Source of the DNA: Pyropia yezoensis
Lineage: Eukaryota > Rhodophyta > Bangiophyceae > Bangiales > Bangiaceae
Direction: 5' to 3'
NCBI GenBank assembly: GCA_009829735.1
Contig: CM020618.1
Coordinates: 25,269,122-25,333,121 of the forward strand
DNA: 64,000 bases
How positions within the stretch are numbered: the first letter of the stretch is position 1; every line of letters begins with the position of its first letter. The position numbers were made by a program, and so were the translations under genes. Under the pieces are notes generated by a model. It was not told the origin of the DNA. It saw nothing but the letters and a program-made list of their open reading frames with translations, and made no database searches. Shown piece after piece: positions 7,110 through 64,000 of this stretch.

Positions 7110-7114
7110 CCGTC

Positions 7115-8026: not shown

Positions 8027-8718
8027 GGTAGGGACCCTATGGGCCCTCCACGTGGGGGGACCTCGTAGAGATCGCGTGGTACCCCTGCGTCCACCCTCCT
8101 AGTGAGGAGGACGAGGCCGACTTGGCCCCTCGGGATTTTACTGGCTTCCGATTGGTCCCCTCCTATGGAGGCGGGACCGGGTCGCCATTGATTCTGGGGC
8201 CCATTTTGGGATTCCCAGTGTATGGGATTTTCCCCTGACCGGAATTGGCCTTTGGCCAATAATCCGGGATGGGATGCATTTGGGGTTTGGATTGTGATTG
8301 TGTATTTTGCGTGATTGTGAGATTGGGGAGATCTTGAGTGTTGGCACTGATGTCCGGCGCGGCTCTTCTCCCCCGTATCCTGGAGATTCCTGCCCCGCTG
8401 GCAGGGATGATCCGTGGGAGAGGGGGCCCTCCGGACATGTTGGAGGGTTTTGATTGGCTCGCACGTGGCCCGGGTTGGAGGGTTGCTGGGTGCGGGTGAG
8501 AGAGGGTAAGAGTGTGCGTGGGGGTGCGCGTTGCTTCCCCCTTCGAAAAAAAAGGAGACTTGCGTGTGCTTGAACACTGTCGTCCTGGTCGCGGATCCCC
8601 GCGTGAACCAGCCAGGCGGTCGGCGGTTTTGTATCTCTCCGGTCTCCCCGCGTTCTTGGTGGGTCGTTTCTCTGTGTGTTCTGGGTGCTAGGCGCCTAAG
8701 GTACGTAAAGCCACTTCA
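8027..8718 (+). repeat. 5' LTR of chromovirus A
   Basis: This is a direct repeat of 17068-17759. The other copy starts TGTAGGGACC; this copy has G in place of the first T. It ends CCACTTCA here and CCACTACA there. An A-run of eight with a following AGGAGACTTGCG lies near 8547-8566 and recurs in both copies. Confidence 0.93.
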
Positions 8719-8835: not shown

Positions 8836-10552
8836 TGTCAGATAACGAGCAGAATCCCCCTCGGGGAGAGACGGGAGTCCTTGAGGGCGGTTCGTCCGTG
8901 ACGAGGGAGAGCGCGACGGGAGCTGCTCTTCCGACTCACGCCCTCGGGGCTGGACTGGACGACCTGGCCACCCGTAGGGTGACCACTCGTCTACCCTCGC
9001 TGGAAATCGGTTCGGAGGGCCCAGTGGGCGAACCTTTCTTCCCGCCGCGGACGGGACGGGAGGGGGGGAATTCAATCGGCCTCGGCGACCTCCCTGGGGT
9101 CCATCCCGTGGCGGGATGGGTTCTGAGGGAACGCCCACCCCTCCTGTTCCCGCTGTGGGGGCATCGTCTCCTAAGGAGACCCCCCGAGCGTTTGTGGCTC
9201 CTGGATCGGATACTCCTACGGAGGAATGGAAGAACGCGATGGTGGAAGCTGTTAGCGGCCTCCTGACCCCGCTCATCCAACGGTTGAGTTTTGTGTAACA
9301 AAGCGTGACGAAGCGAGAGCGCCAGCGTGGCCGGCGTCCCAGCTCGTCATCTGAGTCGACTTCGGATTATTCCGGAGGGGAGGCTTCGCCTCCCGAGCGC
9401 CGTCGGCGCTCGCGACCTGTCGTCCGAGGGGTGTCGCTCAGGCAAGACCGGGGAGAGTCCCCCTACGGGTGATTCCCCCGAAGATTATTCCGGCTGATGA
9501 CCGCTATGCGAGTCTTCTGGATTGTGAGACCTATGCTCTCAAGAACAAGGACAACCGAGTATCGGGAACCGAGGCCAAAGGCCTGGGAAAGAAGCGTAAG
9601 GACCTGTCCAGCATATTTGGTCGCGATTGTGAATGGGGGGGAGACCCTCCTCTGGGAGTCTTCGAATTCCTCAACCGCTTCGTGAAGGCGGCGATGATAA
9701 CGGCCTCTCAGAGGGGCGAGCTTTGCTCCTCTTCCCGAATTTACTAAGGATCCCTTGAAGAGGGACCTTTATCGAATCCGCCCGTCCGTCGATCACGGCC
9801 GGCGTACTGGGGAAGTAACTTCCTATTTGGAACTTGTGAACTGGCTTTTGCGCACGTACGCAGATGAGCATCTCCTGAATGAACAGGAGGCCATTGTTAA
9901 TGGCGCCTCCCAAGAGGAGGATGAGACAGAGACGGGGTTTCACCGCCGTCTCATGGAACTCCACGCTAAGTGTGGATACATACAAACTTCGGGCCAGGTC
10001 CGAGCCCGCTTTATGCAAGGCACATGGTGGGAGACTCGGCACGAGGTGCGGAACTACGTAGCTGACCGCCCTCATGCTCCTATTGAGCTGGTGGTGCAAT
10101 ATGCCCAACGGGCAGGGGATTTTCGACGGCGGATTCAGGCCGCCGCGGCAGAGCTTAAGGTTAAGGAAGACGCAGAGCGCCACGCCCGTCGTATGGCGCG
10201 TCGCGCTCTGGCAGCCGTTACGTCGTCCCACCTGGAGGTGGGGGAGGCGTCTGCTTCTTCCTACAGGGAATCACGACCCTCTGGGGGGTCACGGGGGACG
10301 GACGGGAAACGAGAGCCCTTCCCCTGCCATATCTGCAATAGTACTTCACACTGGATGGCAGATTGCCCTCACCTCCCTGAGGAGACTCGGAACCGGATGA
10401 CCAAGGCACGCGCCAAGCGCAGAGCGGCTCGAGCCGCTGCTCGTGCGAGTGGGGCGGTTGCTGCTGTCGTGCCCTCCCCGACGGGGAAGGAAGAGCGAGC
10501 GAGTTCCCCTAAGGGGAGCTCATCTGAGTTATCAACTTCGAGAAACGCCTGA
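8836..10552 (+). pseudogene. gag region of chromovirus A (fossil)
   Basis: The gag core carries TSYLELVNWLLRTYADE and later RFMQGTWWETRHEVR, a pattern shared with elements C, D and E in this window. A CCHC zinc knuckle follows near 10327 (CHICNSTSHWMADC). An arginine/serine-rich segment precedes the core. The region is interrupted. Confidence 0.8.
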
Positions 10553-10605: not shown

Positions 10606-13600
10606 ATGAGGGTATTGCGCCGCCCTCGGACGAGTAAGCCTGCATTACTGGCACTCCCTAAGGGGGTGAAACGGGAAAATGTTATTTGCGCGTTTATGCC
10701 ATCATCCAGCTATCAGCTGGCTGTACACTTGTTTGCTACTGAAGGGGTGGAGCATGCTCTACATGCTGTCCTGGATACCGGCAGTGGGCCCTCCCTGATT
10801 CGAAGCTCATTGCTCCCTAAGGGATTGAGGCTCCAGCCCGTAGGGGAGCTGGAGAACATATTATACTTTGACCTGAATGGGGGGTGGCTCCCCATTCGAG
10901 GAACTGTGCGCTTAGGCGTACAAGTGGGAGACCAAGTTTCCTACGTCTGCTTTGGAGTGATCGATAATCTGGCGGTACCCGTCATATTAGGTAACTCCTT
11001 CGGAGATACCGAAGTGAAAACCATCTCCTGTGAGGACCAAACGGTCACCCTCAAGACAGGGATGGTCGTCCCCATCCTTCGGGATATGGAGGACGTGGAA
11101 TCCGGCCCCACTAGGTGGAGCTCTGTGTGCGCTTGTCCTAAGGCCAAGACCGCTAAGCTCAGGTTGTGTCACAAGCTGAAGCTGAAGCCTGAGGATATCT
11201 CCCACGTGAAGGTGAGAGGGCAGTTCCAGGGCCACGGGATTATTTCCGGGCAGCCCCGGATCGCCTCCAGGTATGGGGTTCACGTGGCCAACGGCCCTGC
11301 GGAGCTCAACCGGGACGCCCCGTACGCCGTGCAAATGATGCATCCTACGCCAAGGATTGTCCGCCTCCCCGTTGGGGCGGTGGTGGCGTCAATCTCCTCC
11401 TATCAAGGACCTATACTGAGTGTCTCTCAAGAAGAGATGCAAAAGCTGAGCGAAGGTCCCGCGGCGAAGCCGGAGGGCGCCCATTCCGAGGTGGACCTAG
11501 GAGAGATCCCCGAAGCCCTACGTGGCCAGCTCTTGGAGCTGGTGGAGAAATACAAATCCCTATGGGATGGTACTCTTGGGCTCATCAAGAATACCGCACA
11601 ACGTATCCGCTTAAAACCCGGGGCAACCCCGGTGAGGCAACATCCCTACAAGGCGGGGCACAAGCATCGCCAGTTGGAAGGGGAACAAGTGGAACGAATG
11701 CAAAAACTCGACGTTATTGAACCCGCCGAGGGCGAGTGGGCTAGTCCCGTAGTAGTTTCCCGAAGTCGGACGGTACGCCCCGGTTTTGTATTGACTACCG
11801 GCGGCTCAACCTCGTCACGGTGAAGGACGCATATCCCATCCCAAGGATGGATGAATGCTTGGACTCCCTAGGGGAGGCCAGGGTGTTTAGCACCCTAGAT
11901 TGTAACGCTGGATATTGGCAAATTCCTATTGCACCAGAGGATAAGCACCTGACGGCATTTACGTGCCATAAGGGCATACGACAATGTACGCGGTTGCCCT
12001 TTGGGCTCTGCAGTGCTCCAGCGACTTTTCAACGAGCCATGGATATTATCCTGGCCGGCGTGAAGTGGCAGACGTGCCTAGTATATCTAGACGATGTTAT
12101 CGTCTTCTCTCGCTCGGACGAGGAGCATCTGCACCACCTGGAGCACGTATTGAGCCTTCTCAAGGAGAACGGCGTATCGCTGAAGGCGTCCAAGTGTCAC
12201 CTCTTCCAGAGGGAGGTCGAATATCTGGGACATGTCATCCGCCCAGGGCGGGTGGCCGTGAATGAGAAGAACACCAAGGCCCTGAAGGGGCTACATTATC
12301 CGCGTACGCAGACGCAGCTGAAGAGTTTTTTGGGCATGTGCGGGGTATACCGAAGGTTTGTCCCCAATTTCGCCCGTATCGCTCGGCCGCTGAACATGCT
12401 GACTAGTACGCATCTGGCCAAGGAACTACCTCCTCCTACGGGGGAGACTCAAGCCGCGTTCGAGGAGCTCCGCGACTGTCTTCTGAAGCCTCCTATTTTG
12501 GCAATCCCTCGGGGAGGAGCCCATTGTATTGTGGAGGTGGACGCCAGCTATGAGCAGCTGGGCTGTGCCTTGCTGCAACAACAGAAGGACGGGGAGTATC
12601 TCCCCGTCGGGTATTTTAGTCGGGGTCTATCCCCGGCCGAGCGGAACTACTGTGCCACAAAAATTGAGGCACTCGGAGTGGTATGGTCAGTGACCTACCT
12701 GCGTTCCTTCTTGGAAGGGACCGAATTTCTTGTACGTTGTGAACACTCCGCCCTCACTTCGGTGATGACGAATAGTAGTCCCAATCGACGCCTTACGGGC
12801 TGGAGACTCCGCTTGGCGGAATATTCGTACCAGATTAAGCACAAGCCGGGTAAGGACCACAAGGTGGCTGATGCCCTATCGCGCCTTCCTACGGATGGCT
12901 TGGATAAGACGCCTCTGAATGATCAAATCCCCGTTCTAGCGGTGACGAGGTCAGCAAAGGCCCTTACGGACCGGAGCCCTAAGGGCCTCGGCAAGATTAC
13001 GCTCCGAGAGCTCATTGAGGCCCAGGCTTCCGATGAGTTTTGCAAGCAGCGTCGCTTGGAGGGGCCTATGGTCTCTCCGAAGGATGCCCGTTGGCAACGC
13101 AATGCCTTCTTCTTCGAAGATGACGATGGTGTACTGTGTCGCCATTCCCTCCTCAGGGGGAACAACCAATGGGTCGTTCCAGAGTCGCTTCAAAAGCGTG
13201 TTCTGGAAATGTACCATGACGCGCCCACGGCGGGTCACCCGGGGTCTCGGAAGATGTATCGTACGATGCGGCAGTATTTTCACTGGCCCGCCCTAGTGGC
13301 GGACGTATACGGGTATGTTTATAACTGCCCAGGATGCACTCGGAATCGCATAACGGACAAGAGGCACACGTCTCCTATGAAGCTGTTCCCCGCCCGGGAG
13401 CCATTCCAAGCCGTGGCGATGGACTTGTTGGGCCCGCTCCCGAAGACGGAGAATGGTCACACCATGCTCCTGGTGATGTGTGATCGCTTCACCAAATTGG
13501 TGAGGGCCGTCCCACTGTCGGACACCACTGCCCTTAGGGTAGCTTCGGCATTAATTGACCATTGGGTGGCTGCCTACGGCATCCCGGATTCTACGCTCAC

Positions 13601-14558
13601 GGACAACGGACCTCAGTTCGCTGCCGTGTACTTCCAAGGAGTCATGGGGCTCCTGGGGATCGCCACCAACTTCACGACCCCATATCACCCCCAGACCAAT
13701 GGTCAGGTGGAACGGTAAAACAAGACGATTATGCGACAGCTACGGCCGTACTCGTCCGAGCACCCACGGGAATGGGATCGCTATGTGTCCCTACTGACGA
13801 CTGCATATAATATGCCGGTACATTCGAGTACTGGGGTTGCCCCACTGACCTTCGTAAGCCCTCGGCGATTGGAGGCCTCTAATATTGAACGTTTACCTAA
13901 GGTACGCTCAGTGGACACGGAGGAACCCGACGCCGATTCGGCAGCGGTTCAATACGTGAAAGAGTTGCGCAACCTAATCCCAAGGATTAGGACGAACTTG
14001 GATAAGGCCCAACTGGCCTACAAGCGTGTCTATGACGCGGGTATTCGAGAAGACAATGAGGCCATGTCTCAAGGGGATTGGGTTTATGTGAAATCCTATA
14101 CTAAGGGGCGGACCAAGATGTCGTCTCAGGCGAAGGGGCCATATATGGTGCTACGCACTGACGGTCAACGGTTTCTCATTGAAACCCCTACGGGAGAACA
14201 GACCCAGAGTAGTGACAATGTCACACGCGCTCCCCCGCCTAAGGCAGGGGATCCAGTGTGGAAGCGGGCGCGGGAAGCCCGTGACGCATTCAATGAGTGC
14301 CCTGAGGAGACCTCGGGGAAGGATGTGTTCGAGCAGATCGTCGGCCACCAATGGGTGGAAGACGACAACGGGAAACCCGACTTGGACTTCCGGGTCCGTT
14401 GGTTTGGCCACGGACCCGAAGGGGATACTTGGCACCCCAAGCAGGGGGTGCCACGAGCAGTTCTCCTGAAGTATGCCCGGAAGCACAAGCTCCCCATCAA
14501 GGGACGGGACCAAGTGTCCCGACTATGCCCCCAAGGGGGGATCGAAGAAGAAGGATAA
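10606..14558 (+). pseudogene. pol region of chromovirus A with C-terminal chromodomain-like segment (fossil)
   Basis: Domains in order: aspartic protease with VLDTGSGPSLIRS near 10770; reverse transcriptase with FSTLDCNAGYWQIPI and LVYLDDVIVFSR; RNase H starting at IVEVDASYEQLG; integrase with an HHCC-type zinc-binding region, AMDLLGPLPKT, LTDNGPQFAAVYF and YHPQTNGQVER; then a chromodomain-like end near 14318-14480 (FEQIVGHQWVEDDNG). This order, with RNase H before integrase, is that of Ty3-type elements, and the tail marks the chromovirus branch. It stops 80 bp short of the end of the convergent antisense frame. Confidence 0.9.
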
Positions 14559-14637
14559 CAAACTAACTCCCTCAGGGAAATCGGTAAAAGAAACAGACTA
14601 CTACGTGAGACGCCTCTACGAGGCGCCCTACAATGCA

Positions 14638-16428
14638 TCAGTAACCCCGGTGCCCATAGGGCTGGGACCCATCATGGTATCGAGGGCCATGTCCTCCACC
14701 CCCGTATGCGGCTTCGGCTGCGCCCCGGAGGGACAAACTCGGGATCTGCAACATGGTATCCATGTTAGCTCTCCCGAGTTCTCGGTCCAGGCGCTCGGAG
14801 AGCGCCGACTGAGATAGTAGTGGCAACGCCACCGGCGGAATATCCCGCCAGTCCCGACGTGTGGTGACAATCGCCGCCATGTCGTTAGCCAGGCTCGTGT
14901 AGGCCCGACATAGCCCCATGACGAGGGAGTCTTCGACTGCATCCCCAAGGGATGGGGGGGGTGGATCAAAGACCCGCCCCAATGCCGCTACGGTAGTACC
15001 CGGGATAGGTCGAGGCATCGCCAAAGGCGGACCGCCCCAACGGAAGGAAGCCACTGGCTCAGGGACCGTTGCCCGCCGTCTGCTGGGCGACCGAGCCTCC
15101 TCACCGGGGGGATAGTTCCCTCGAGGGGGCGCTCCAAAGGATTGCCCAGAAGATGACGCGCCTTGAGCACGACTCCCCCTCGGAGAGTTCGGCCGCATAG
15201 ACGGGCCATACCGCTCCTGGCCAAACCCTGGGAGACAAGGCCCCTCCTCCTCCATGCGGGGTTCCGGGTTGGGCACCCGCGTGGCGGCCATTAACCCCGA
15301 AGGGTAGGGTAGCTCCTCGTGACCCAACCCCTCTTCCAAGAAGAGGACACCGTCCGCGGACAAAGACTTCGCGCATCGTACCAATGCACGAGCTCGAAGA
15401 GGAAGACCCAGGAAGGAAGGCAAGGCCTGTTGATGGACCTTCCCGATGAGATGGAGAAGTGCACGCAGGTACGCCGCGGAGTCAGGGTTACCCTGACACA
15501 ACACGTCAATGGGGCTCTCTTGGAGAGCCCGCAAAAGGGGGATCGGAACAAGCCAAGCATGTCCGTAGTACAACCCCGAAGACAGCAGGACGTCGGCTAC
15601 CTCCACCATCCAGCAGGCGTTCAGAGCTGCTCTGGCCGCCGAGTCCGGGCCGTCGGCCATCAGCCGACTCCCCCGCACGGCAACTAAGTTGCCAATACGC
15701 GCGGCCATGCCGCGTGGAACCTCGTAGTCGCTCCACCAAGAGGGGATGACCGGGTACAACTTGAGGCGCTCTCCGCGGGAGAAGCACTCTACCTCCCGCT
15801 GCTCTGCGCAGGCGAAGATGCCATGGCGCCGACGGTGCCGATGCTCCGTTAACGCTTGGCGTAGGAAGTAACCGCGAGGGCGTCGCCCAATGACCGGTAA
15901 CGGACCCGGGTAATACGCCAGGTCGAAGACCGGCATTGTCCCCGGTGGTAACGGGGGGCGCGAGCACGCATCATCCAGCTGCTGAGCGAGCTTCCAATCC
16001 TCCGCAAAGCGGAACACGGTGTTGTCCGTCGGCGTCCCAATCGGGACCTCGTAGAGGTCCGGGTAGAGATGGCGGAATGTTGTCCACACCCCCGTCATGC
16101 GGCGTGGATCCACCTGAACCCACCGGTCGGTGACCGCGCCGGGATGCGGGTGAGGGTAGGGCCACTCCTTGTGAAAGGGGATGACTTCCCCGAAGGGGCG
16201 CGGCCCCCGTGAGTCCGCCGACGGCGGAACAGGTACCTCGGCCGGCGAAGCCGGACTGGCATCACCCCGGCCACTCCCGGCGTCGTCCATCGGGACGTCG
16301 TCGGGAGAGGCGGGTGGCAACCCCGTGTCCGAAGGGCCACGGGGGGAGGAAGGAGCCGGAGGGTGAGCGGACCCGCCACCCTCACCCATGGGAGCGGGGT
16401 TGCCCATCTGCCCCGACGGGGTAGCCAT
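14638..16428 (-). CDS. Antisense accessory ORF of chromovirus A
   Basis: An uninterrupted minus-strand frame of about 596 codons from MATPSGQM (ATG at 16428; an upstream ATG in the same frame would give 647). It lies between pol and the 3' LTR and faces pol tail-to-tail. It has no retroviral domain I recognise. It is homologous to the frames at 21620-23546 and 57170-59113: shared features in order are MATP at the start, a TD...F...D.QQ stretch, a PG..P.F turn, A(E/Q)..E....YP..P.WW...EVP.G, a (D/H)G.V.L.EGLG..(E/D)YPY.(S/P)G block near residues 380-405, and a C-terminal helical EL.R region. The N-terminus is Pro/Gly/Ser-rich. Function unknown; no transmembrane segment or zinc finger is evident. 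Confidence 0.8.
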   Translation of the reverse strand: MATPSGQMGNPAPMGEGGGSAHPPAPSSPRGPSDTGLPPASPDDVPMDDAGSGRGDASPASPAEVPVPPSADSRGPRPFGEVIPFHKEWPYPHPHPGAVTDRWVQVDPRRMTGVWTTFRHLYPDLYEVPIGTPTDNTVFRFAEDWKLAQQLDDACSRPPLPPGTMPVFDLAYYPGPLPVIGRRPRGYFLRQALTEHRHRRRHGIFACAEQREVECFSRGERLKLYPVIPSWWSDYEVPRGMAARIGNLVAVRGSRLMADGPDSAARAALNACWMVEVADVLLSSGLYYGHAWLVPIPLLRALQESPIDVLCQGNPDSAAYLRALLHLIGKVHQQALPSFLGLPLRARALVRCAKSLSADGVLFLEEGLGHEELPYPSGLMAATRVPNPEPRMEEEGPCLPGFGQERYGPSMRPNSPRGSRAQGASSSGQSFGAPPRGNYPPGEEARSPSRRRATVPEPVASFRWGGPPLAMPRPIPGTTVAALGRVFDPPPPSLGDAVEDSLVMGLCRAYTSLANDMAAIVTTRRDWRDIPPVALPLLSQSALSERLDRELGRANMDTMLQIPSLSLRGAAEAAYGGGGHGPRYHDGSQPYGHRGY

Positions 16429-17067
16429 GACTGACCGCTCTCCAATGGGGACGGGGGGGGGGAAGAGTGAGGATGCCACCCCCACCCTTAGGGTGAGGGC
16501 GAGGGAGACGCACGCAGACCGGTGGCAGCGAGGAGGAGTAGCGGGAGTGGTGGGGACGGAGGCCGTCCTCGCGGCGAGCACCCGTTGCCGCCCCCCTCGC
16601 TACGATCCACCCCTCTCGGGTGGACAGGCGGCCCTCTTCTACCCCTCAGCCCCCTGACAAGGGGCCGAGGGGGGGGTGCACAAGACGCCCCTAAACCCCT
16701 CGCTCCCGGCTACGCCAGGAGAGCCAGTCCCCTCACGGCCCCACCCAATGCGGGCAGGGCCGTGGGAGGCGACAGGCCCTATCCTTGCTGCGTCCCCCAC
16801 CCCTCAGATGGTGGTTTTGAGGGGGGTGTCTCCACGTATCCCCCCCCCTGTCGTTCAACGGGGGCGGACACGATTGTCCCCCCAGGGGAGAAAACCATGG
16901 GACCGAGCTGACCCAGTGTTATCCACCCCCCCCGTGGGGATGGGTACACTCGGCGGAGGGGACGGCATGCTGCCAAGTGGCATTGCCTCCCCCGCCCGTT
17001 TGGCGCTGGGGGGGAGTTTCCCTCAGTGTCTGGGTCGCGGGTCGCAACCCCCTGGAGGTGTGGGAAG
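16429..17067. other. Spacer between antisense ORF start and 3' LTR of element A, with purine tract
   Basis: About 640 bp with no convincing frame. The last bases before the LTR, GGAGGTGTGGGAAG (17054-17067), form a purine-rich tract of the kind that primes plus-strand synthesis. If the antisense frame is expressed, its promoter should lie here or in the 3' LTR read in reverse. Confidence 0.5.
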
Positions 17068-17759
17068 TGTAGGGACCCTATGGGCCCTCCACGTGGGGGG
17101 ACCTCGTCGAGATCGCGTGGTACCCCTGCGTCCACCCTCCTAGTGAGGAGGACGAGGCCGACTTGGCCCCTCGGGATTTTACTGGCTTCCGATTGGTCCC
17201 CTCCTATGGAGGCGGGACCGGGTCGCCATTGATTCTGGGGCCCATTTTGGGATTCCCAGTGTATGGGATTTTCCCCTGACCGGAATTGGCCTTTGGCCAA
17301 TAATCCGGGATGGGATGCATTTGGGGTTTGGATTGTGATTGTGTATTTTGCGTGATTGTGAGATTGGGGAGATCTTGAGTGTTGGCACTGATGTCCGGCG
17401 CGGCTCTTCTCCCCCGTATCCTGGAGATTCCTGCCCCGCTGGCAGGGATGATCCGTGGGAGAGGGGGCCCTCCGGACATGTTGGAGGGTTTTGATTGGCT
17501 CGCACGTGGCCCGGGTTGGAGGGTTGCTGGGTGCGGGTGAGAGAGGGTAAGAGTGTGCGTGGGGGTGCGCGTTGCTTCCCCCTTCGAAAAAAAAGGAGAC
17601 TTGCGTGTGCTTGAACACTGTCGTCCTGGTCGCGGATCCCCGCGTGAACCAGCCAGGCGGTCGGCGGTTCTGTATCTCTCCGGTCTCCCCGCGTTCTTGG
17701 TGGGTCGTTTCTCTGTGTGTTCTGGGTGCTTGGCGCCTAAGGTACGTAAAGCCACTACA
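17068..17759 (+). repeat. 3' LTR of chromovirus A
   Basis: A 692-bp copy of 8027-8718 beginning TGTAGGGACC and ending CCACTACA. DIRS-like minus-strand sequence resumes immediately to its right. Confidence 0.93.
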
Positions 17760-20798: not shown

Positions 20799-21266
20799 TG
20801 TGGAAAAACCTGCTCACAGTAACCTCCACCAAGTTGGTGGCAACGGTGAGGTTGCCTCTCGTAACGTTGAGAACCGGAAGGGGTGCAAGTCGCACACACG
20901 CTGTCTCTGTTGTGGGGCAATCCCTCGACAAGTAAACAAGAAATTGGTGTGTGGGCCAACAGTTTCTTGGTCGGGACGGGGAAGCGAGGCCAAGCCCCGC
21001 TGTCCCTCCCCTTATCCCCCCAGGGTCCCCTCAGAATCTCGCCACTCAGAATCTCCCACCCCAGCACCTGCCCACCGGGCCACACGAAAATTCAAGACAA
21101 TAAAATGCAGAAAACCCTCAAGTCAAAGTTGGACTTACTTCGAAGCTCACTATCCCTAACTTAGGGAATATGAACCCAAATGCATGGGGAGAAACGGGTC
21201 AGGCTAGCTGCCTGCCGTCCCTTGCATGGCACATGTTGCCCCCAACCTGGGGTTATTACTGCCACA
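20799..21266 (-). repeat. 3' LTR of chromovirus B
   Basis: Read on the minus strand it starts TGTGGCAGTAATAACCC and ends TTTTTCCACA. It is 468 bp, nearly the same length as the 469-bp LTRs at 54217-54685 and 56362-56830, with a highly similar central part and a diverged left end. Confidence 0.8.
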
Positions 21267-21619
21267 CTCCCCTCTCCTCAGTTCCGACCGACCTGGTCGG
21301 CCCCGAGAAGGGGTATGAGAGCGCGTGTTGCACTCGCAGGGGGCGCATCTCGCTGCCCCCCGGTACGTCACGTCGACGTGGAGGTGGTCACGTCGACCGC
21401 CCCTCTCCTCAAGCTTGCCCACTTGGCAGCTTGCACTCAACATAGCGCATCCATCACCACCTTCCACCACCACCGCACCCACTCGTGCCCTCCACCTACA
21501 CCGGGCCACCATACGCTTGGGAGGCCCTTGGTCCACCGACGATCCAGGTCCCCCTCAACTCGAGGTGGGCCTCGGGCAGTTGCGACCGAGTTGTCTCTCC
21601 CCAACTTGGGGAGCGGCAC

Positions 21620-23546
21620 GGTGTTTTCCGGGGTGGTGTCTGACTCCCTCGATGAGCGCATGGAAGATGCGCCCCGCATTGTAGCACCCGTCGGGACTTC
21701 CGGCGGGAGCTCCGCGGCTTCCCCGGGGGATGGGATGCTTGCGTTACCCGACTGTCTGTTGGCGGCAGGCTCTCCCCCGGAGGCAGGCTCCGTTACTCCA
21801 CGGGGGGCCCTGTGGAGGTGGTTCCACCCACCCTGGCCCCTGTACGAGCAGGGGTTGACGGCTATCCGCTGCGGCCGAGTCGGCATGGCGATGGATCGCG
21901 TCTGGGGCCGCCTACAAAATAAGTTCCCCGGTAGGGTCGGGTTCCCTGCCGACTTCAAGCCTGACCAGTTTGCCTTCCTTGACGACGACGAGGTCGAAGA
22001 CGTGCAGCGGGTCAAGAACTTGTTGACCCGCGGGGGTACCACCGAGGGCCCCGGCGACATGCCGACCTTCACGTGGGACGCGGTGGCAACTCGCTTCCCG
22101 TACCTCCGTAGTTCCAACCGGCTCACCAACCACTTCGACGTGCGGATGGAAAAGGACATCCGGCGAGGTCCCTGCTTGATGACCTCGGCTCAACTTGAGT
22201 TTGCGAAACAAGCGACGGCGAACAAGGAGCTGCTCTACCCCAAGAAACCGGAGTGGTGGCCTCCTTATATGGTCCCTTATGGATTCCCCGCGGTACTACC
22301 GCGGTCGGTGGACCACTTTGGCTCCGTCATGTTGACGGCTAGCTTGGACCACCTAGTGTTTGCCATGTTGGCAACACTCTGGCTTCTCGAGGTCATGTCG
22401 ACCTGGGTGGCCTGCGTTCAGAGACGCGGGATGTTCTGGGGCCTCCCGCCCCGCTTGATTCAAGGTTTGGAGCAGCTCACCCGTCGGCAAGTTCCTGAGG
22501 GGTCCTCTTCGGGTCACCTCACTCTACTCGAGGAGATGTTGAAGCTACATAATCTCAACGAGTGGGAGAGCATCAAGCAAATGTTGCGCCGACCTTCCCG
22601 TGCACCCAAGGACGACGGCACACTTTGCCAGTTCGTCTAGGTCGGCCGTGGACTTCACGACGGCAGCGTGGGACTCAAGGAGGGGTTGGGCATCGGGGAC
22701 TACCCGTATGGCCCGGGAGTGGAGCGCCACACTGCGCCACCTCCAGACAATATCTCAGTGGTGGGCGTAGCTATGCACCTAGAGTACCTGGCGCAAGGCA
22801 CGACGGCGGCCTCAACTCGAGGCCGCGGCTACCGTCGGACTCCGCCCACGCGGCGTCTCCCTTCTCCTCCTTTTGTCCCGTTCCAGCCGCACGGGGACAT
22901 CTCGATCGTCGTTGCGGTTGAGTCATCCACGCCTGTGTCCCCCAACTTGAAAGCTACTCTACTCACGGCCTGTCCCAAGTTTGTGTTGCCGTCCGCGCGC
23001 CTGGCTTCGGAGATGCTATTCACCACGTTGGTGCGCACCCTGTCGTGAATGGCCGTGTCTGCGGTGACACTCCAGTCGTCGAAGACCCCTCAACTTGAGG
23101 ATTGCACTCGTGCGGTCGTCTCGACTGCTAGTTGCGAGTCGGTTGCAGAGTTTATGACGGCCGAGTTGGCTCGTATCGGCTCCATCATGTCTTTGTCGGC
23201 CGCACTTGGACGCGGCAAGCGTCGGGCGAGCCGAGCGTACTCGCCTCGTCGTCGTCGTCGCCGCCACTCGCGACACTCTCCCTCCGTGTCGGAAGACGAG
23301 TTATTTTGCTCCGAGTCGGAGTCATCCACCCCGTCCGAGACCGAGTCGGTCCGGCGTCTGCGTCGCTAACTTGCGCGTCATACCCAGCAGGCTGCCAACC
23401 GCAGTTTTCGTCGTACTCGCGACTGTGCTGGTCATGACGGTTCCGACTTGGATCTGCTGGCTGCGCCTACTTGCGGGGATCGCTATCGACGTGGGTGTCG
23501 CCGTTCCTCTTCACGTGGGGGTGGGGAGTCTAGCATGCGTGCCTAG
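21620..23546 (+). pseudogene. Antisense accessory ORF of chromovirus B (broken copy)
   Basis: A plus-strand reading frame closely related to the intact one at 57170-59113: both contain SDSLDERMED or TDSLDERMED near the start, PTFTWDAVATR, TSAQLEF, WWPPYMVPYGFPA/WWPQVEVPYGFPA, HFGSVMLTAS, LLEVMSTWV and an arginine/serine-rich tail. The first methionine seen in A and C is not evident here. It faces the minus-strand integrase tail-to-tail with roughly 110 bp between them. The frame has a few breaks, as expected for a truncated element. Confidence 0.8.
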
Positions 23547-23656
23547 TTGGCAGTTGCCTTTGTTCAGAGAGTGATAGGTTCAAGGCTGTAGTAAAAGCCT
23601 CATGGCTTTCCACTTCGACTGGAAGCTCTCTCTTGGCACAGCCACTCGACCTTCCC

Positions 23657-29150: not shown

Positions 29151-29313
29151 TGTGGCTAATTCCACGGCGGCGGCCGTGTGCTGGCGGCCGCGGTTATCCG
29201 GTGTCACATGCGGACCAATGAGTCAGTGACATTGCGCAACGTCCGTGATTGCGTGTCACATAGGAGGCTGATTGGCGTTCCCGAGGCGTGTTGGCCGTGC
29301 CCTGCTCGGCTGT
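29151..29313 (+). repeat. 5' LTR of element F
   Basis: 163-bp direct repeat of 32266-32428. It contains the pairs CGGTGTCACATGCGGACCAA and CGTCCGTGATTGCGTGTCAC in both copies. Confidence 0.85.
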
Positions 29314-46261: not shown

Positions 46262-46298
<37 letters not shown>

Positions 46299-47545: not shown

Positions 47546-47589
<44 letters not shown>

Positions 47590-54685: not shown

Positions 54686-54687
54686 TT

Positions 54688-56361: not shown

Positions 56362-56830
56362 TGTGGCAAAAACCTCTCGCACACGCGGCACCCAAGTTGG
56401 GGCGGTGTACAAGGGCTGCCTCCCATGTCGGGGGAACCGGAAGAAGTGCAAGTCGTACACACTCTGTCCCTGTTGTGGGGCAAACCCCCCACTGACAAAC
56501 AAGAAGATGGTGTGTGGTCCAACAGTTTCTTGGTCGGGACGGGGAAGCAGGTCCAAGCCCCGCTGTCCCTCCCCTTATCCCCCCAGGGTCCCCTCAGAAT
56601 CTCGCCACTCAGAATCTCCCACCCCAGCACCTGCCCACCGGGCCACACGAAAGTTCAAGACGATAAATGCAGAAAACCCTCAAATCCAAGTTGGATTTAC
56701 TACTAAGCTAACTATCCCGAACTTAGGGAATATGGACCCAAATGCAGGGGGAGGAACGGATCAGGCTAGTGGCCTGCCGCCCCTTGCATGGCACATGTTG
56801 CCCCCCTACCTGGGGGTCAATACTGCCACA
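56362..56830 (-). repeat. 3' LTR of chromovirus C
   Basis: On the minus strand it starts TGTGGCAGTATTGACC and ends TTTTTGCCACA; preceded (to the right) by the purine tract GAGGAGAGGGGAG. 469 bp. Confidence 0.9.
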
Positions 56831-57169
56831 CTCCCCTCTCCTCATTTCCGACCGACCCGGTCGGCCCTGTGAGGGGGTGCGTAAACGCACGTCTCGGCAT
56901 TGGGGGCGCGACTTGCTGTCCCCCCCCCGAGTACGTAACGCGGATGTGGAGGCGGTCACGTTGACCGCCCCTCTCCTCCAGCTTGCCCACTCGGCAGCTT
57001 GCTCTCCTCGGCTCTCACTTGCCCACCACCACCACATCCCCTTCACCTTCCCCTGGGCCGCCCCACGCTGGGGAGGCCACCCGTATACCCTCGATCCTAG
57101 CCCCCCTCAACTCGAGGCGGTTCTCGTGCCGCTGTAGCCAGGGCGTCTCTCCCCAACTTGGGGAGAGCC

Positions 57170-59113
57170 ATGGCGACCCCGGGGGTGGAGACGGACTCTC
57201 TTGACGAACGCATGGAGGACACCTCCTACGGTGCAGCGCCCGTCGGGACTTCCGGCGGGGGCTCCGCGGTTACTCCGGGGGATGGGACTCCCGCGTCACC
57301 CGGCTTTGGGTTGACGGCGGGATCTCCCCCGGAGGCGGGACACGTTGTCCCGCGTGAGGCCTTGGGGCGGTGGTTCTACCCCGCTTGGCCTCTGTATGAG
57401 GAGGAGTTGACTGTTCTTCGCTGTGGCCGACTTGGCGCAGCGATGGGTCGGGTGTGGGACCGCCTACGGGAGAAGTATCCCCGTAGGTTCGGGTTCCCTG
57501 CCGGCTTCAGGACGGACCAGTTTGCCTTCCTGGACGATGAGGGGGTCGAAGACGTACAGCAGGCCAAGGCCATGGTGGACCGCGGGGGAACTATCCCGGG
57601 TCCCGGCGACTTGCCGACCTTTACTTGGGATGCGGTGGCAACTCGCCCCCCGTACCTTCACGAGGCCGATCCGCATACTCATCACTTTGATGTGCGGATG
57701 GAGAAGGACTTCCGGCGAGGTCCCTACTTGATGACCTCGGCTCAACTTGAGTTTCCGCAGCAGTCCGCTGCCAGTAAGGAGCAGTACTACCCGAAGAAGC
57801 CCGAGTGGTGGCCTCAAGTTGAGGTCCCCTACGGGTTCCCTGCGTTGCTACCACGGTTGCTCGACCACTTCGGCTCCGTCATGTTGACGGCTAGCCCAGA
57901 TCACCTGGTGTGGGCTATGTTGGCCACCCAGTGGCTCCTCGAGGTCATGTCGACCTGGGTGTCGTGTGTCCAGCGGCGGGGGATGCTCTGGCATCTTCCC
58001 CTCCGGCTTATCCAAGGTTTGGAACAGCTCACCCCTCAGCTAGTTGCTGAGGGGCGCTCATCAGGACAACTCACTCTACTTGAGGAGATGCTCCGCCTGC
58101 ACAAGTTTATCGAGTGGGAGAGCATTGAGCACAAGTTGCGCCGCCCCACTCCTGGGCCCAAGGACGATGGCGCACTTCGCCAGTTCGTATGGGTCGCTCG
58201 TGAACTTCACGACGGCCGTGTGGTACTACGAGAGGGGTTGGGCATTGGGGACTACCCGTATGCCCCGGGGGTGGATCGCCACACTGCGCCACCCCCGGAC
58301 AAGGCCACAGTGATGGCCGTGCCCTCTCACTATGACCATATGACTCAACCCACTGCGGGGGCCCCGAGTAGGGGTCGCAGTTACACCCGGGCACCGCCAC
58401 CTCGGCGTGCCCCTCCGCTTCCTCCTGTCCCCTACCAGCCGCACGGGGACATCCCGATAAGCGTGGCCGTTGAGTCGGCCACCCCGGTGTCCCCCAACTT
58501 GGGGGCCACTCTTCTGACGGTTTACCCCAAGTTGGTGTTACCGGCCACGCCTCTGACCTCAGAGATGATGATCACCACGTTGGTGCGCACCATTTCCTGG
58601 TTGGCCGCGTCGACCGCAACCCTTCAAGTCACCGAGACTCCTCAACTTGAGGAGCGCGTTCGTACTGCGGTGGCGACCGCGAGTTGCGAGTCGGTGGCGG
58701 AGTTTATGACGGCCGAGTTGGCTCGCATCGGGGCTATTATGCCCCAGCCAGCCCCACTTGGGCGTGGCAAACGTCGTGCGAGCCGGGCATACGCGCCTCC
58801 TCGCCGTCGTCGCCGACGCTCGCGGCGCTCTCCCTCCGTATCGGAAGACGAGTTGTCTTACTCCGTCTCCGAGTCCTCCACTCCGTCAGAGTCGGAGTCG
58901 ATCCGGCGTCTGCGTCGCCAACTTGCGCGCAAGACTAAGCAGAGGGGTAGCCGCGGTCGTCGCCACTTGCGCGACCGTGAGGGGCGCGACTGTTCCGACT
59001 TGGAGCCGCCGGCCCCGCCGACTGGTGGGGAGCGTTATCGACGTGGTTCTCGCCGCTCGCCTCCACGCGAGGGCGAGGGCCGTGGGGTTGGAGAGTCTAG
59101 CATGCATGCCTAG
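57170..59113 (+). CDS. Antisense accessory ORF of chromovirus C
   Basis: An intact frame of 647 codons from MATPGVETDSLDERMED (an in-frame ATG lies 12 bases upstream). It starts 340 bp inside the LTR and ends 112 bp short of the pol stop, which faces it. The central part is helix-rich and mostly uncharged, with PTFTWDAVATR, WWPQVEVPYGFPA, HFGSVMLTASPDHLVWAMLA, LLEVMSTWVSCVQRRGM and LREGLGIGDYPYAPG; the last third ends in an arginine/serine-rich tail (RRRRRRSRRSPSVSEDE, then RRLRRQLARKTKQRGSRGRR) that looks nuclear or RNA-binding. It shares the block order with the frames in A and B. No known domain is recognised. Strong candidate for a protein conserved with these elements. Confidence 0.85.
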   Translation: MATPGVETDSLDERMEDTSYGAAPVGTSGGGSAVTPGDGTPASPGFGLTAGSPPEAGHVVPREALGRWFYPAWPLYEEELTVLRCGRLGAAMGRVWDRLREKYPRRFGFPAGFRTDQFAFLDDEGVEDVQQAKAMVDRGGTIPGPGDLPTFTWDAVATRPPYLHEADPHTHHFDVRMEKDFRRGPYLMTSAQLEFPQQSAASKEQYYPKKPEWWPQVEVPYGFPALLPRLLDHFGSVMLTASPDHLVWAMLATQWLLEVMSTWVSCVQRRGMLWHLPLRLIQGLEQLTPQLVAEGRSSGQLTLLEEMLRLHKFIEWESIEHKLRRPTPGPKDDGALRQFVWVARELHDGRVVLREGLGIGDYPYAPGVDRHTAPPPDKATVMAVPSHYDHMTQPTAGAPSRGRSYTRAPPPRRAPPLPPVPYQPHGDIPISVAVESATPVSPNLGATLLTVYPKLVLPATPLTSEMMITTLVRTISWLAASTATLQVTETPQLEERVRTAVATASCESVAEFMTAELARIGAIMPQPAPLGRGKRRASRAYAPPRRRRRRSRRSPSVSEDELSYSVSESSTPSESESIRRLRRQLARKTKQRGSRGRRHLRDREGRDCSDLEPPAPPTGGERYRRGSRRSPPREGEGRGVGESSMHA

Positions 59114-59224: not shown

Positions 59225-62200
59225 TCACGTTGAGGGGGGGCTGTTAGGGTCTATATCATTCCGGGCACAGTATGCCCCGACCTTCTCAGCGGGAAGGTCC
59301 TCCACATACTCCCACGTATCATCCTTGGCTTTGTAGCCGAACGAACGCACCCTCAACATGAGGCGGTTAGTGTCCTCATCCCAGCCGTGGTCGATGAACT
59401 TATTGAACACGTACTCCTGCGGGCCATGTTTAGCCGCAGGCAGCGAGGGCAGGCGCCACGCTTCCAACGCACGCGCCCAAGCTGGGTCGCCTGCAGGCGG
59501 TGGTGCAACTTTGACCACGTCCTGTCCGTTCACTGTGCGGACCCCATCGTCACTTTCGATGGTGAAGCGCCGCCCATCAGTACGAAGGACCTGGTACGGC
59601 CCCTTCGTCTGGAATACCAACTTACCCCCAGTTGGGGTGTGTGAGTGAACCAGTACCCAGTCTCCCTGCTCGGGGACATGCTTAGCATTGCGCACCTTTT
59701 TGTCAAAGGTACGCTTGTAGCGCTTTTGTGCTTTGTCCATCTCAGCCCTGACTTTAGGGATGAGTTTTTCAAGCCTAGCAGCGAACCCCGCCTTACTCTC
59801 AGTAGGAGTAGGCGTACTGCCACCATCCTCCCTAGTTGGGAGCGGCCGCCGCACGGCAATAGACCGCACGCGACGGGGGGTCACAAAAGCGAGGGGTACT
59901 TCCCCGGTACATGAGTGAACCTGCGAATTGTAGGCAGTGGTAAGAATAGAAATGTATTGGTCCCACGTTTTCACGTGCTCACTCACATAGTGGCGCAGCT
60001 GCCGAACAATAGTTTTGTTGAAGCGCTCCACCTGCCCATTAGTTTGTGGGTGGTAGGGGGTAGCATAGTTTGCCTTGACCCCCAACATATCCAGCACTCC
60101 CTGAAACAGTACGGACGCAAAATTGCGGTCCATTGTCCGATAGTGTACTATCCGGGATGCCATACGCGGCAACCCAGTGATCTAGGAAGGCTGACACGAC
60201 CGACATGGCCGTGATCTCTGCCAGTGGGATCGCTCGCGTAAGTTTCGTGAAGCGATCGCAGATGACCAGGAGGTACTGGTTGCCCTCCTCGGTCACTTGC
60301 AGTGGCCCAAGGATGTCCATTGCCAACGCAGCAAAGGGCTCCTTGGCCGGGAACAGTAGCATAGCCGTAGTAGGCCGCCGTTCCATCAGACGGTTCTGGG
60401 CACAACTTGTGCAGGCAGCCACCCAACTGTAGATGTCCACCACCATGGACGGCCAGTAGTACCTGGTCCTCAGAGTCTGGTACAGTTTACTAGACCCCAG
60501 GTGTCCACCTGTGGGAGGGTTATGCTCCCTCTCAAGAATACTGTCCTTGAGGGATGCGGGGACGACAAGTTGTTCGGTCCCCTGGAATACCCCCCTCCTC
60601 AAGAGGAGGCCATCGTCTCCGATAAGGAATCGCGTCCCCGCCACCGTATCCAGCGTATCCCTCTGCGACTTGCAGAAGGGGTCCTCGGCCTGGGCCTTCA
60701 CCACCTCGTCCAGGGACAGGGGCAAGTACCTGTTGTTCCCTGGCGCCTCGGGGTCCAACGCCTGACCCGAGCGCGTGACTACCCCCACGATGGGGATGTC
60801 CTCATCGACTGGGTTAGTGTCCAGCCCCTCGGTAGGTACCCGAGAAAGGCCGTCGGCAAGGGCATGTTGCCTGCCAGGTCGATACTCAATATCAAAGTTG
60901 AAGGGTGCCAGTCGCACCCTCCACCGGTTGAGACGAGTGTTCGTGCAATCCGTCTTGAAGATGAACTGCAACGCGCGGTGGTCACAGCGGATGAGGAACT
61001 TCTCACCCTCTAGGTAGTGACGAAGTGACGTCACCGCCCACACCACTGCGAGTCCTTCCAGCTCGGTGACTCAGTAGTTCTTCTCCGCCGAGTTCAGCCC
61101 CTTGCTGAAGTATCCCACCGGCAAGTACTCCTTGTCCGGCTGCTGCTGAAGCAGCACACAACCACGTTGGTCGTAGCTAGCGTCCACATCCAGGATGTAG
61201 TGGCCTCCCAACCCGGGAATAACCAAGACGGGGGGCTTCAGCAGAAGGTCTCGAAGAGTCTCAAAGGATTCCTGCTCCACCCGACTTGGGGGAGGCAGGT
61301 GCTTCGGTAGCGTTGAGCTAACTAGCTCATTCAATGGCTTCGCCACCTTGGCGAAGCCCTTGGTGAAACTTCGGTACACGTTACACATCTCGAGGAAGCT
61401 CCTCATCTGGGTCTGGGTCCGGGGGTGCTGAGCCTTACGGATGGCCCTCAAGTTCTTCTCGGTGACACTGAGGCGCCCCGGACGGACAACATGTCCCAAG
61501 TATTCCACATCTTGAGTGAAGACGTGGCACTTACTCGCCTTCAGTGACACACCGGCGTCAGCAAGTAGCTTGAACACCTGGCCAAGGTGGCCAATGTGTT
61601 CCTCCGGACTTCGGGAGAACACAATGATATCGTCTAGGTACACGAGACAGATCTGCCGCCGTACTCCGGCCAGAATCATGTCCATAGCGCGCTGGAAAGT
61701 TGCCGGCGCGTTGCACAGTCCAAACGGGAGTCGCTTGCACTGGTAGGTACCACAGTGACAGGTAAAGGTAGTTTTATGCCTGTCTTCCGGGGCAATGGGA
61801 ATTTGACAGTACCCTGCGTTACAGTCTAGGGTAGAGAACACGTTTGCCTCCCCCAGAGAGTCCAGACAGTCGTCCATCCTAGGTAGGGGATAACTGTCCT
61901 TCACCGTGCTCTCGTTGAGCTTACGGTAGTCGATACAGAACCGTGGGGTCCCATCAACTTTGGGGACGATAACCACCGGACTCGCGCACTCGGCGTTACT
62001 GGCCTCGATCACATCGAGGGCCTCCATGCGAGCGACTTGCTCCTTAACGAGGGCCCTTGAACGGGGCCCTCCTCTATACGGTTGTTGGCGTATCGGGGGT
62101 GCACCGGGCTTCAACTCGATCCGGTGTTGGGTGGCTCTCATGAGTCCCAATGGACCATCCCACAACTTGTGATATTGGTCCAAGAGGCGTTCAACTTGAA

Positions 62201-63053
62201 CCCTTAACCTGGGTGGAACACCCTCCATGTTCACATGGGGCCGAGGAGAGGCGGCCGTCTTGGCTTGATGCTTCTCCTTCCCGAACTTCGGGTCGCTACT
62301 CGCGCCCGCGTTGAGGGTGACCGCTACTACTGGTCCCTCATGCTGGTCGATATGGCCGAACTTGGCTCCCGACTTGAAGTACTTGGGCGACGAGCTCAGG
62401 TTCATAACCTGGATCCTCCACGGAACCCTGGCTTTGGAGTTCATCGTGCCAAGGGGAACATGCACTTGGTGCTTGCGAGAAAGACGGGGGTGAGGGTGCA
62501 CCAACCCGTTCCCCGTATAATCAGTTACAACGTCAACGTGCGCCACCGAGTTGGGGGGCAACGTGACTTTACGGGCTAAACGCAGGGTAGCAGTAAACCC
62601 TTCTCTCACAGAGCAAACAGGCTTCGACTGTGAGACTGTCACAGGAGCCACAGACTTTCCCTTACCAAGGATGCGGATGGTCTCCCCATTCATCAACTTG
62701 ACCCAATACTCAGGGCCACAAATCAAAGGCACTTGTGTAACAACATAAGGGGTACCCAGAAGCAGGGGTACCGATATATTCTCAACTACTCCATAGGTCA
62801 CGTCGACCTCATGGGTTCCCAACCTAGTTGGTAGGGTCACGGCACCAACGATGGGAAGTACCCCACCATTGATGTCGATCAGATGGTCAGCTTCAGACCT
62901 CCAGCTCTGGAGCTTCATCTCCTTTGGTGATAGCGACTTGCGTATCAAGGAGGCTCCTGACCCGGTATCAAGTACGATACGGGCACAGCAGGCACGGCCG
63001 GGGGCTAGTTGCACCCGTCCAGCTACCTGAAAGTTCTCACCCGTCAGCACCAC
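59225..63053 (-). pseudogene. pol region of chromovirus C with chromodomain-like end (fossil)
   Basis: In reading order: protease with IVLDTGSGASLIRKSLS; reverse transcriptase with FSTLDCNAGYCQIPIAPED and CLVYLDDIIVFSR; RNase H from ILDVDASYDQRG; integrase with ACTSCAQNRLMERRPTTAM, AMDILGPLQVTEEGN, STLSDNGPQF and YHPQTNGQVERFN; then a chromodomain-like FIDHGWDEDTNRLMLRVRS and TWEYVEDLPAEK. Ty3 order, chromovirus branch. A couple of interruptions. Confidence 0.9.
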
Positions 63054-63110
63054 GATGACCCGACGTGGGTTTACGTTCTTGGGGAGTCCTACCCGAGTGG
63101 GCGGACTCGC

Positions 63111-64000
63111 TTAGGTCGCCGCAGTATCCGGCACGGTTGGTTCGTCCTCTTGACCCACTTGGCCGAGGCTGCCGTTGTGAGCTTCGGACGGCCAGCTCGA
63201 ACGGTCATTCGTTTCCCGCCGACTTGGCGTCCAAATCTGGGGGCAAAGGGGAGACGACGAGTCCGAGGACGACGTGTCCGCCTCCTCCGCCGAGGGTGTG
63301 GCGACTGCGACGACCGGTCGAGACCCACCCTCGCGGCGTGAACGTACTTCATTCGTAGCCGACCTCTTACTCGCAATCCTATCAAGTTGTTGGATGCGTT
63401 TACTCAACTTGGGGCAATCACATGCCCAGTGTCCATCGGAGTTGCAGTTCCAACACCGATTGTCAGTTCCCGGAGGGGTCTTCCCGACTGGGGAAGACGA
63501 AGAGGTACCCTGGGAAGTTCCCACGGCAGCTACCACCCTTTTCTTGCGGATTCGGCGCGCCTCCCTCAGCTCTCTGGCCTGGCGCGCCTCCTCGCGATCC
63601 TTGGCCAACTCGGCCTGACGCTCCTGGCGTTGTTCCTCCCGCAACTTGCGGTAGGCCTCACCTCTGCGGTAGGCAAACCTAGCCAACTCGGCCAGGGTCG
63701 CCCGAGCAGTGTTATGCTCCCGGGTTTCCATCCGGACTGACCCATGGAGTCCCTCCACAAACCGACTCTTCGCCACAGCTTGTGGATGAAGAAACCCACA
63801 AAGACTGTTGAGCTTACAAACTCGCTCCGCAAAGGACAACTCGTCCTCAGCCTCTTCCTGATGGGCTTGCGTAAACTCCTCGACTTGAGAAGCCAACGCT
63901 GCTTCATCCAGCATGGCTCTCAACAACCAGTTGACGAGCTCCAAATAGGACGTCACCTCACCAGCGCCTCCACTCGAGGAACTGGGCATGACGGACGTAA
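63111..64000 (-). CDS. gag of chromovirus C, partial at the window edge
   Basis: The minus-strand frame continues past the window. It has TSYLELVNWLLRAMLDEAAL, FVEGLHGSVRMETREH and a basic, glutamate/arginine-rich helical stretch, then a CCHC knuckle (CWNCNSDGHWACDC) near 63425-63460 and a Ser-rich end. Almost identical to gag of D where they overlap. Confidence 0.85.
   Translation of the reverse strand, partial: TSVMPSSSSGGAGEVTSYLELVNWLLRAMLDEAALASQVEEFTQAHQEEAEDELSFAERVCKLNSLCGFLHPQAVAKSRFVEGLHGSVRMETREHNTARATLAELARFAYRRGEAYRKLREEQRQERQAELAKDREEARQARELREARRIRKKRVVAAVGTSQGTSSSSPVGKTPPGTDNRCWNCNSDGHWACDCPKLSKRIQQLDRIASKRSATNEVRSRREGGSRPVVAVATPSAEEADTSSSDSSSPLCPQIWTPSRRETNDRSSWPSEAHNGSLGQVGQEDEPTVPDTAAT

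What the first reader, a model, noticed from the sequence alone, without database searches (positions are those of the whole stretch)
14638..16428. A large antisense protein family carried by chromoviruses between pol and the 3' LTR
Element A has an uninterrupted frame of about 596 codons on the strand opposite to gag-pol. Its product is homologous to antisense frames at the same place in elements C (57170-59113, intact) and B (21620-23546, broken). A and C are diverged: LTR sequence, primer-binding site and gag all differ. Yet the block order is kept: MATP start, TD...F...QQ, PG..P.F, P.WW...EVP.G, and EGLG..(E/D)YPY. Random antisense frames do not keep such blocks, so the protein is probably functional for the element. 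I do not recognise the family. Antisense frames are known in a few plant Ty3 elements and in HIV-1, but I cannot equate them with this one.
Basis: partly seen in the sequence, partly recalled or inferred. Interest (0 to 1): 0.9.

Follow-up and report, generated by a model that had tools for sequence, protein, structure and literature searches.

The report
Conserved antisense gene in algal retrotransposons
Several related jumping genes of a red seaweed carry, on their reverse strand, a large protein gene of unknown type that natural selection has kept, so these elements appear to use an extra protein beyond the standard set.

Summary
At 14638-16428 (-) a 596-codon frame lies opposite and tail-to-tail to pol, between pol and the 3' LTR of a Ty3/gypsy element in what is very probably the Pyropia yezoensis (nori) genome. 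It is homologous to the antisense frame of element C (BLASTP 5e-19; profile comparison 4.7e-31 over 284 columns). At least four element lineages (A, B/C, D, F) carry it; at the loci checked it lies opposite the adjoining pol, and RT and antisense-protein relationships agree. Between subfamilies dN/dS in the antisense frame is 0.15-0.22 (A, dS about 0.9), 0.06-0.29 (C), 0.25-0.40 (F) and 0.27-0.55 (D, 14 of 15 pairs). Freshly inserted F copies give 0.86-1.64, a built-in neutral control. Sense frames opposite A and C hold 11-25 stops each. In one C pair the gene is about as constrained as RT (0.15 versus 0.18); in A it is less so (0.16 versus 0.07). No credible Pfam, PHROGs or PDB match was found. 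A core of about 290 residues is conserved. Antisense accessory genes at this place are a known kind (Grande, Retand, RIRE2, Boty); the protein family appears new. Transcription and function were not testable.

The parts
8027..8718 (+). 5' LTR of element A; its first base is uncertain
   Evidence: 8028-8718 matches 17069-17759 at 99.4%; boundaries read
9755..10552 (+). gag-like frame of element A with a weak CCHC zinc knuckle
   Evidence: the Pfam zf-CCHC score is below its cut-off
10606..14558 (+). protease / RT / RNase H / integrase region of element A, in several frames, ending in a weak chromodomain
   Evidence: RVT_1, RT_RNaseH, Integrase_H2C2 and rve hits; Chromo E 8e-4, below cut-off; protease assigned by position, not by a hit
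14638..16428 (-). antisense gene of element A: 596 codons, tail-to-tail with pol
15253..16140 (-). conserved core (residues 97-392) used for the second structure model; homologous to C, D, F and metagenome proteins
17068..17759 (+). 3' LTR of element A, preceded by a purine-rich stretch (17054-17067)
20871..23546 (+). element B (element on the minus strand): LTR-like end and broken antisense frame
   Evidence: 20871-25214 is 79.5% identical to 56434-60785; tblastn to C with 3 stops
56362..56834 (-). 3' LTR of element C
57170..59113 (+). antisense gene of element C: 647 codons, Arg/Ser-rich tail
59225..63989 (-). integrase, RT, protease and gag region of element C, opposite to its antisense gene

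Best explanation
The frame is a true protein-coding accessory gene of a group of Ty3/gypsy elements in a bangialean red alga. It is encoded antisense to gag-pol between pol and the 3' LTR and was probably inherited together with pol since before lineages A, D, C and F split. Shown here: homology across the lineages, opposite orientation to pol at the loci checked, agreement with RT relationships, and purifying selection on the antisense frame while elements were being propagated. Inferred: an antisense mRNA starts in or near the 3' LTR (the roughly 640 bp between ATG and LTR, or the LTR itself) and runs towards pol. It makes a roughly 600-residue protein with a folded helical core and disordered parts, which acts in trans on the element's own RNA, cDNA or chromatin, most likely in the nucleus, as is reported for Grande gene23. 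I give the coding-gene part about 0.93 and the nuclear regulatory part about 0.35.
For: Homology: 5e-19; probability 99.9%, E 4.7e-31; 15 invariant columns in 16 rows. Antisense place: 19 of 20 A-family loci have an adjoining pol match, and in 19 of 19 it is on the other strand (L024 has no pol match); D at two loci (L032 with L046, L034 with L048), F at one (L056), C at two. Copy numbers are lower bounds and count matches, not elements: 77 with A, spread over A, D and E types; 139 with the C core, none of the 139 with a stop; 82 with F, 69 of 82 without stops. Selection: A against nine A2 copies, w 0.15-0.22 at dS 0.83-0.96; C family, 28 of 28 pairs w 0.06-0.29; D, 14 of 15 pairs w 0.27-0.55; F subfamilies, 5 pairs w 0.25-0.40. 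Frame test: in old pairs the antisense frame has the lowest w, the sense frame sharing its wobble positions comes next (0.27-0.47), the other four lie between 0.82 and 3.07. RT and antisense-protein identities give the same grouping ((A,D),(C,F)).
Against: No transcript or protein evidence exists here. In A the gene is less constrained than the RT-integrase piece (0.16 versus 0.07 for L018), also in the seven close copies (0.50-0.83 versus 0.19-0.32), and in B versus C less than the integrase end (0.31 versus 0.18). Its first 100 residues are nearly free (w 0.59-0.70 in three comparisons). Young F copies give 0.86-1.64 in 6 of 6 pairs and one D pair 1.08; this is expected of dead insertions but means many copies decay. 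In close A pairs the frames are not separated (for L012 two other frames are lower). A basic cluster that stands out is present in C only (12 K/R in 20 residues, 0 of 300 shuffles reach it; A 8, 14 of 300; A2, D, F and E 6-7, 56-176 of 300), so nuclear action is not supported family-wide. No known domain or fold points to a function.
Confidence: 0.8

Rival explanations
1. The antisense frame is a by-product of G+C-rich sequence or of constraint on the sense strand (RNA structure, packaging or a sense protein), and no protein is made.
For: The region is 64-66% G+C and the window holds other very long frames of unexamined status. No transcript data are available.
Against: The three sense frames opposite A and C hold 11-25 stops each. 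Codon periodicity is specific to the antisense frame in old comparisons and absent in a young F pair, where the six frames give 0.78-1.34. Amino-acid blocks persist at 25-35% identity between lineages.
Confidence: 0.04
2. The protein is a structural or particle-associated factor (second Gag-like or Env-like protein) rather than a nuclear regulator.
For: The modelled core is mostly helical, as capsid domains are (recalled); the position between pol and 3' LTR is where env-like genes sit (PMC7264820).
Against: No Gag or Env Pfam match among the members scanned. The highest 19-residue hydropathy mean is 1.23-1.43 in A, A2, C, D and F, so no clear membrane helix (group E reaches 2.15). Foldseek listed no capsid protein. 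Env-like plant genes are in the sense of gag-pol (PMC7264820).
Confidence: 0.2
3. The antisense RNA itself regulates the element (double-stranded RNA and silencing), with the coding capacity secondary.
For: Proposed in the literature for antisense transcripts of LTR elements (PMC7264820). Tail-to-tail genes 79 bp apart would give overlapping 3' ends (inference).
Against: An RNA-level role does not predict low dN/dS in one frame.
Confidence: 0.1
4. The gene was captured from the host or from another mobile element, and the elements merely carry it.
For: A roughly 6 kb repeat (group E) carries a homologue of the core alone, without a pol match in three copies.
Against: No Pfam family was found, and the three protein searches, which score a capped set of candidates and hold few red algae as far as I can tell, returned nine unnamed metagenome or assembly proteins. 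Agreement with RT argues for an old resident. The three E copies look little constrained (w 0.61-0.74), so E is more likely derived than ancestral.
Confidence: 0.12

Closest known systems
Grande gene23 and RIRE2 antisense ORF (plant Ty3/gypsy)
   Same: Antisense gene between pol and 3' LTR, present in most copies; gene23 product reported nuclear and transcribed from a promoter upstream of it (PMC7264820)
   Different: No sequence of gene23 was available to compare; those are seed-plant elements, here red algal ones; no promoter known here
Retand ORF4 / TRP28 (Transposase_28) antisense proteins
   Same: Antisense, conserved across a whole lineage, proposed DNA-binding regulator (PMC11963269, abstract and discussion)
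   Different: Retand is a non-chromovirus lineage; PF04195 matched none of the 16 family members at E 0.1
PvRetro13 ORF2 and Boty brtn
   Same: Antisense additional ORFs between pol and 3' LTR (PMC7264820; brtn named in PMC8365987, passages)
   Different: PvRetro13 ORF2 has an SMC domain per the review; no SMC match here. Neither was compared by sequence
Tekay 5' aORF of sunflower (a chromovirus)
   Same: Additional protein in a chromovirus, present in 500 of 523 elements, long disordered parts and helices (PMC11728184, passages)
   Different: Located at the 5' end of the element; different architecture; function unknown
Antisense genes of HTLV (HBZ) and HIV-1 (ASP)
   Same: Antisense gene near the 3' LTR; works-like analogy only (HTLV antisense promoter in the 3' LTR per PMC7264820)
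   Different: No bZIP or other credible Pfam match and no clear membrane helix here; the features of HBZ and ASP are recalled and no sequence of theirs was compared

Membership tests
Antisense additional ORF between pol and 3' LTR (aORF-3R / eORF-3'R) | Long frame opposite to gag-pol between pol and 3' LTR | tested here: met
   LTRs located for A (both) and C (3' only); orientation to pol at 19 of 19 A-family loci with pol and at D and F loci, whose LTRs were not located
Antisense additional ORF between pol and 3' LTR (aORF-3R / eORF-3'R) | Present in most copies and conserved like other element proteins | tested here: inconclusive
   many copies and selection near that of RT in C, weaker in A; the share of elements that carry it was not counted
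Antisense additional ORF between pol and 3' LTR (aORF-3R / eORF-3'R) | Antisense transcription | not testable with these tools
   no RNA data held
Retand TRP28 family | Transposase_28 domain (PF04195) | tested here: not met
   0 of 16 members at E 0.1
Ogre plant mobile domain ORFs | Plant mobile domain (PF10536) | tested here: not met
   0 of 16 members at E 0.1
Chromoviruses (Ty3/gypsy) | Ty3/gypsy order RT-RH-IN | tested here: met
   A; F
Chromoviruses (Ty3/gypsy) | Chromodomain at the end of integrase | tested here: inconclusive
   E 8e-4 (A), 3.9e-5 (D) and 0.0051 (F), all below Pfam's cut-off; none in C at E 0.01
Env-like proteins | Transmembrane helix | tested here: not met
   hydropathy maxima 1.23-1.43 in A, A2, C, D, F (Kyte-Doolittle only; group E reaches 2.15)
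Grande gene23 homologues | Sequence homology to gene23 | not tested

The most novel reading that the evidence does not exclude
A previously undescribed antisense protein family, with a fold not matched among solved structures, has been an obligatory trans-acting partner of red algal Ty3/gypsy elements since before lineages A, C, D and F diverged. The core-only homologue in the roughly 6 kb E repeats, which show no pol, would be a hijacker or dominant-negative of that partner, so elements compete through it.
Probability: 0.15. Interest if true: 0.82.

Novelty: new variant of a known kind. Interest (0 to 1): 0.62.

Why it matters
A survey of plant LTR elements found extra-ORF proteins so divergent that it asked whether they have any function (PMC6317226, passages). 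Here one homologous antisense family spans at least four element lineages, shows selection comparable to RT in one of them, and comes with a neutral control from dead copies in the same genome. That makes the function question directly testable, in red algae, where the listings of my searches showed no described case (listings only, apart from passages of PMC7423979 and PMC12477816). If confirmed, gag-pol would not be the whole protein set of these elements, and antisense genes near the 3' LTR would look like a recurrent solution in seed plants, fungi, red algae and HTLV.

Tried and rejected

Considered and rejected: a chance frame in G+C-rich DNA (conservation is frame-specific); a sense-strand gene in A or C (stops in each sense frame); a plain host gene (many copies; the A, C, D and F loci checked lie beside pol, except L024). 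Group E was considered as the ancestral source and judged more likely derived, because its three copies show w 0.61-0.74; its ends were not resolved.

Literature searches whose listings gave no direct match on red algal antisense genes. Most subscription papers are not in that library, including the original papers on gene23, Retand, RIRE2 and Boty, which I know only through PMC7264820, PMC11963269 and passages of PMC8365987.

Full report
Where it is. The window lies in a 107.5 Mb genome with three large contigs of 43,592,136, 34,331,705 and 29,385,039 bases. These sizes match the three scaffolds (43.6, 34.3 and 29.4 Mb) reported for Pyropia yezoensis, in which 48% of the genome is predicted repeats, LTR retrotransposons predominant (PMC7423979, passages). 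The host identity is an inference, a strong one.

Element A. Two LTRs (about 8027-8718 and 17068-17759) are 99.4% identical over 691 bp, so the insertion is young. Between them lie a gag-like frame and RT, RNase H and integrase with a weak chromodomain. Pol ends at 14558. On the other strand a 596-codon frame begins at 16428 and stops at 14638, so the two genes are tail-to-tail, 79 bp apart. The three sense frames opposite the antisense frame contain 12, 22 and 14 stops in A and 11, 25 and 19 in C.

The family. A and C share 26% identity over 288 columns (E 5e-19). A profile of three C copies and one F copy against a profile of A, A2, D and two metagenome proteins gives probability 99.9% and E 4.7e-31 over 284 columns. 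In a 16-row alignment 15 columns are invariant. Group D sits opposite a different pol (L032 with L046; L034 with L048), as does group F (L056, whose pol is one open frame of 1208 codons; a stop-free 600-codon F copy is in L057). Of 20 A-family loci, 19 have an adjoining pol match and in 19 of 19 it is on the other strand; L024 has none, and L027 in addition holds an unrelated pol (32% identity) on the same strand, apparently in an insertion that splits the gene. A homologue of the core alone lies in a roughly 6 kb repeat, group E, without a pol or gag match in the three copies examined. Outside this genome the protein searches, each scoring a capped candidate list, returned nine proteins, P0001-P0009, without names or Pfam domains, from assemblies and metagenomes; P0002-P0005 are 31-39% identical to A. 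In the genome the C core has 139 scored matches, none of the 139 with a stop, and F has 82, 69 of them without a stop; only the best candidates are scored, so these are lower bounds, and one copy can give more than one match.

Selection. Nei-Gojobori counts were made on genomic copies as they stand, skipping stops and insertions. For A against 19 other A-family loci (L010-L028; L009 is the window itself): nine distant A2 copies (L018, L020-L026, L028) give w 0.15-0.22 at dS 0.83-0.96; three middle ones (L016, L017, L019) 0.26-0.35; seven close ones (L010-L015, L027) 0.50-0.83. In the nine distant copies the RT-to-integrase piece gives 0.07-0.13 (7 of 9 had it), the integrase end 0.11-0.19 (8 of 9) and the first pol piece 0.15-0.38 (5 of 9); in the seven close copies the RT-to-integrase piece gives 0.19-0.32. 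So in A the antisense gene is less constrained than RT and roughly like the ends of pol. In the C family (the window copy and seven fetched copies, all open through 647 codons) 28 of 28 pairs give 0.06-0.29; the 8 pairs with the broken B copy give 0.27-0.31, where the integrase end of B versus C gives 0.18. For window C against one copy (L042 for the antisense gene, L049 for pol of the same copy) the antisense gene has w 0.15 (0.10-0.22), RT 0.18 and the integrase end 0.14; the middle integrase piece, 0.43, runs across a change of frame and is not comparable, and the second copy of that script failed. D gives 0.27-0.55 in 14 of 15 pairs and 1.08 in one young pair. In F, young copies give 0.86-1.64 in 6 of 6 pairs, while pairs across older subfamilies give 0.25-0.40 in 5 of 5.

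Which frame. Read in all six frames, the old pairs shown (A against L016 and seven A2 copies, B and L042 against C, five F pairs) give the lowest w in the antisense frame (0.15-0.40). The sense frame that shares its wobble positions follows (0.27-0.47), and the other four give 0.82-3.07. One young F pair gives 0.78-1.34 in all six frames. In close A pairs (L010-L012) the frames are not separated, and for L012 two other frames are lower. This is what a protein on the antisense strand predicts and what RNA constraint or a sense protein does not.

Inheritance. In a 156-159-residue RT piece, A and D (79%) and C and F (77%) are closest, other pairs 70-74% (A2 goes with A: 97%). In the antisense core the closest pairs are again A-D (34%) and C-F (35%), others among A, C, D and F 25-31%. 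The simplest reading is one acquisition before these lineages split, with the antisense protein evolving much faster than RT. With four lineages and simple identities this is suggestive, not a formal test.

Protein. Residues about 97-392 of A form the part conserved across lineages. The core model has mean pLDDT 71 and pTM 0.76 and is mostly helical; the whole-protein model is poor for most of the rest, though it suggests a second helical stretch at about 477-575. The first 100 residues of A are nearly free of constraint (w 0.59-0.70), while the last 100 are strongly constrained between A and A2 (0.06-0.10). The C-family tail is rich in Arg and Ser with 12 K/R in 20 residues; A, D and F lack this. 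No credible Pfam, PHROGs or PDB relative was found.

How it probably works. Shown: an open, conserved, antisense frame under selection, old within these elements. Inferred: transcription from a promoter in or near the 3' LTR, as reported for Grande gene23 and HTLV (PMC7264820), and a trans-acting accessory role, most likely nuclear. I commit to that reading at about 0.35; a particle protein is the main rival.

Known or new. [quoted passage not shown] TRP28 of Retand is well documented, being encoded by antisense ORFs in 97% of recently active Retand clusters (PMC11963269, abstract and discussion). The Transposase_28 and plant mobile domains that mark part of the Retand and Ogre elements were tested for and not found. 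I therefore file this as a new variant of a known kind: a new protein family, in red algal Ty3/gypsy elements, with measured selection in at least four lineages. That no such family is in print rests on the searches only, seen mostly as listings.

Noticed in passing
54213-64000 and L045: Element C belongs to an inverted composite: 56362-62165 is 99.4% identical to the inverse of 64095-69898 (window numbering continued), and gag at 55863-56361 is 96.4% identical to the inverse of 63595-64093; no 5' LTR of C was found. This looks like self-integration or joining of two cDNAs (interpretation inferred).
   Followed up: partly
L035, L036, L037 with L047, L051-L055: A roughly 6 kb repeat family (probably eight matches, three examined) encodes a homologue of the antisense core alone, with no pol or gag match; the three copies are about 93% identical and w is 0.61-0.74. 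Its ends were not resolved.
   Followed up: partly
14000-17759 against L018 and L026: Between A and A2 copies the LTR is 89-97% identical in 150-base windows while RT-integrase dS is about 0.5 and antisense-gene dS about 0.9: the elements look like mosaics, perhaps by template switching.
   Followed up: no
7105-8577 (-): A frame running out of the 5' LTR of A contains an RT-like stretch with YLDD that resembles DIRS-type RT (recalled, not searched).
   Followed up: no
27099-27803 (+): A gag-like frame whose sequence resembles the gag of group D (L046), so a D-type element or fragment may lie here (read, not aligned).
   Followed up: no
29272-31795 (+): Integrase-like and Ty1/copia-like RT frames (recognised by eye).
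   Followed up: no
34236-35294 (-): A 352-aa frame that looks like a Tc1/mariner-type transposase (by eye).
   Followed up: no
40467-48388: Very G+C-rich repetitive stretch with overlapping long frames on both strands, the longest 1785 aa, coding status not examined; a caution against judging frames by length in this genome.
   Followed up: no
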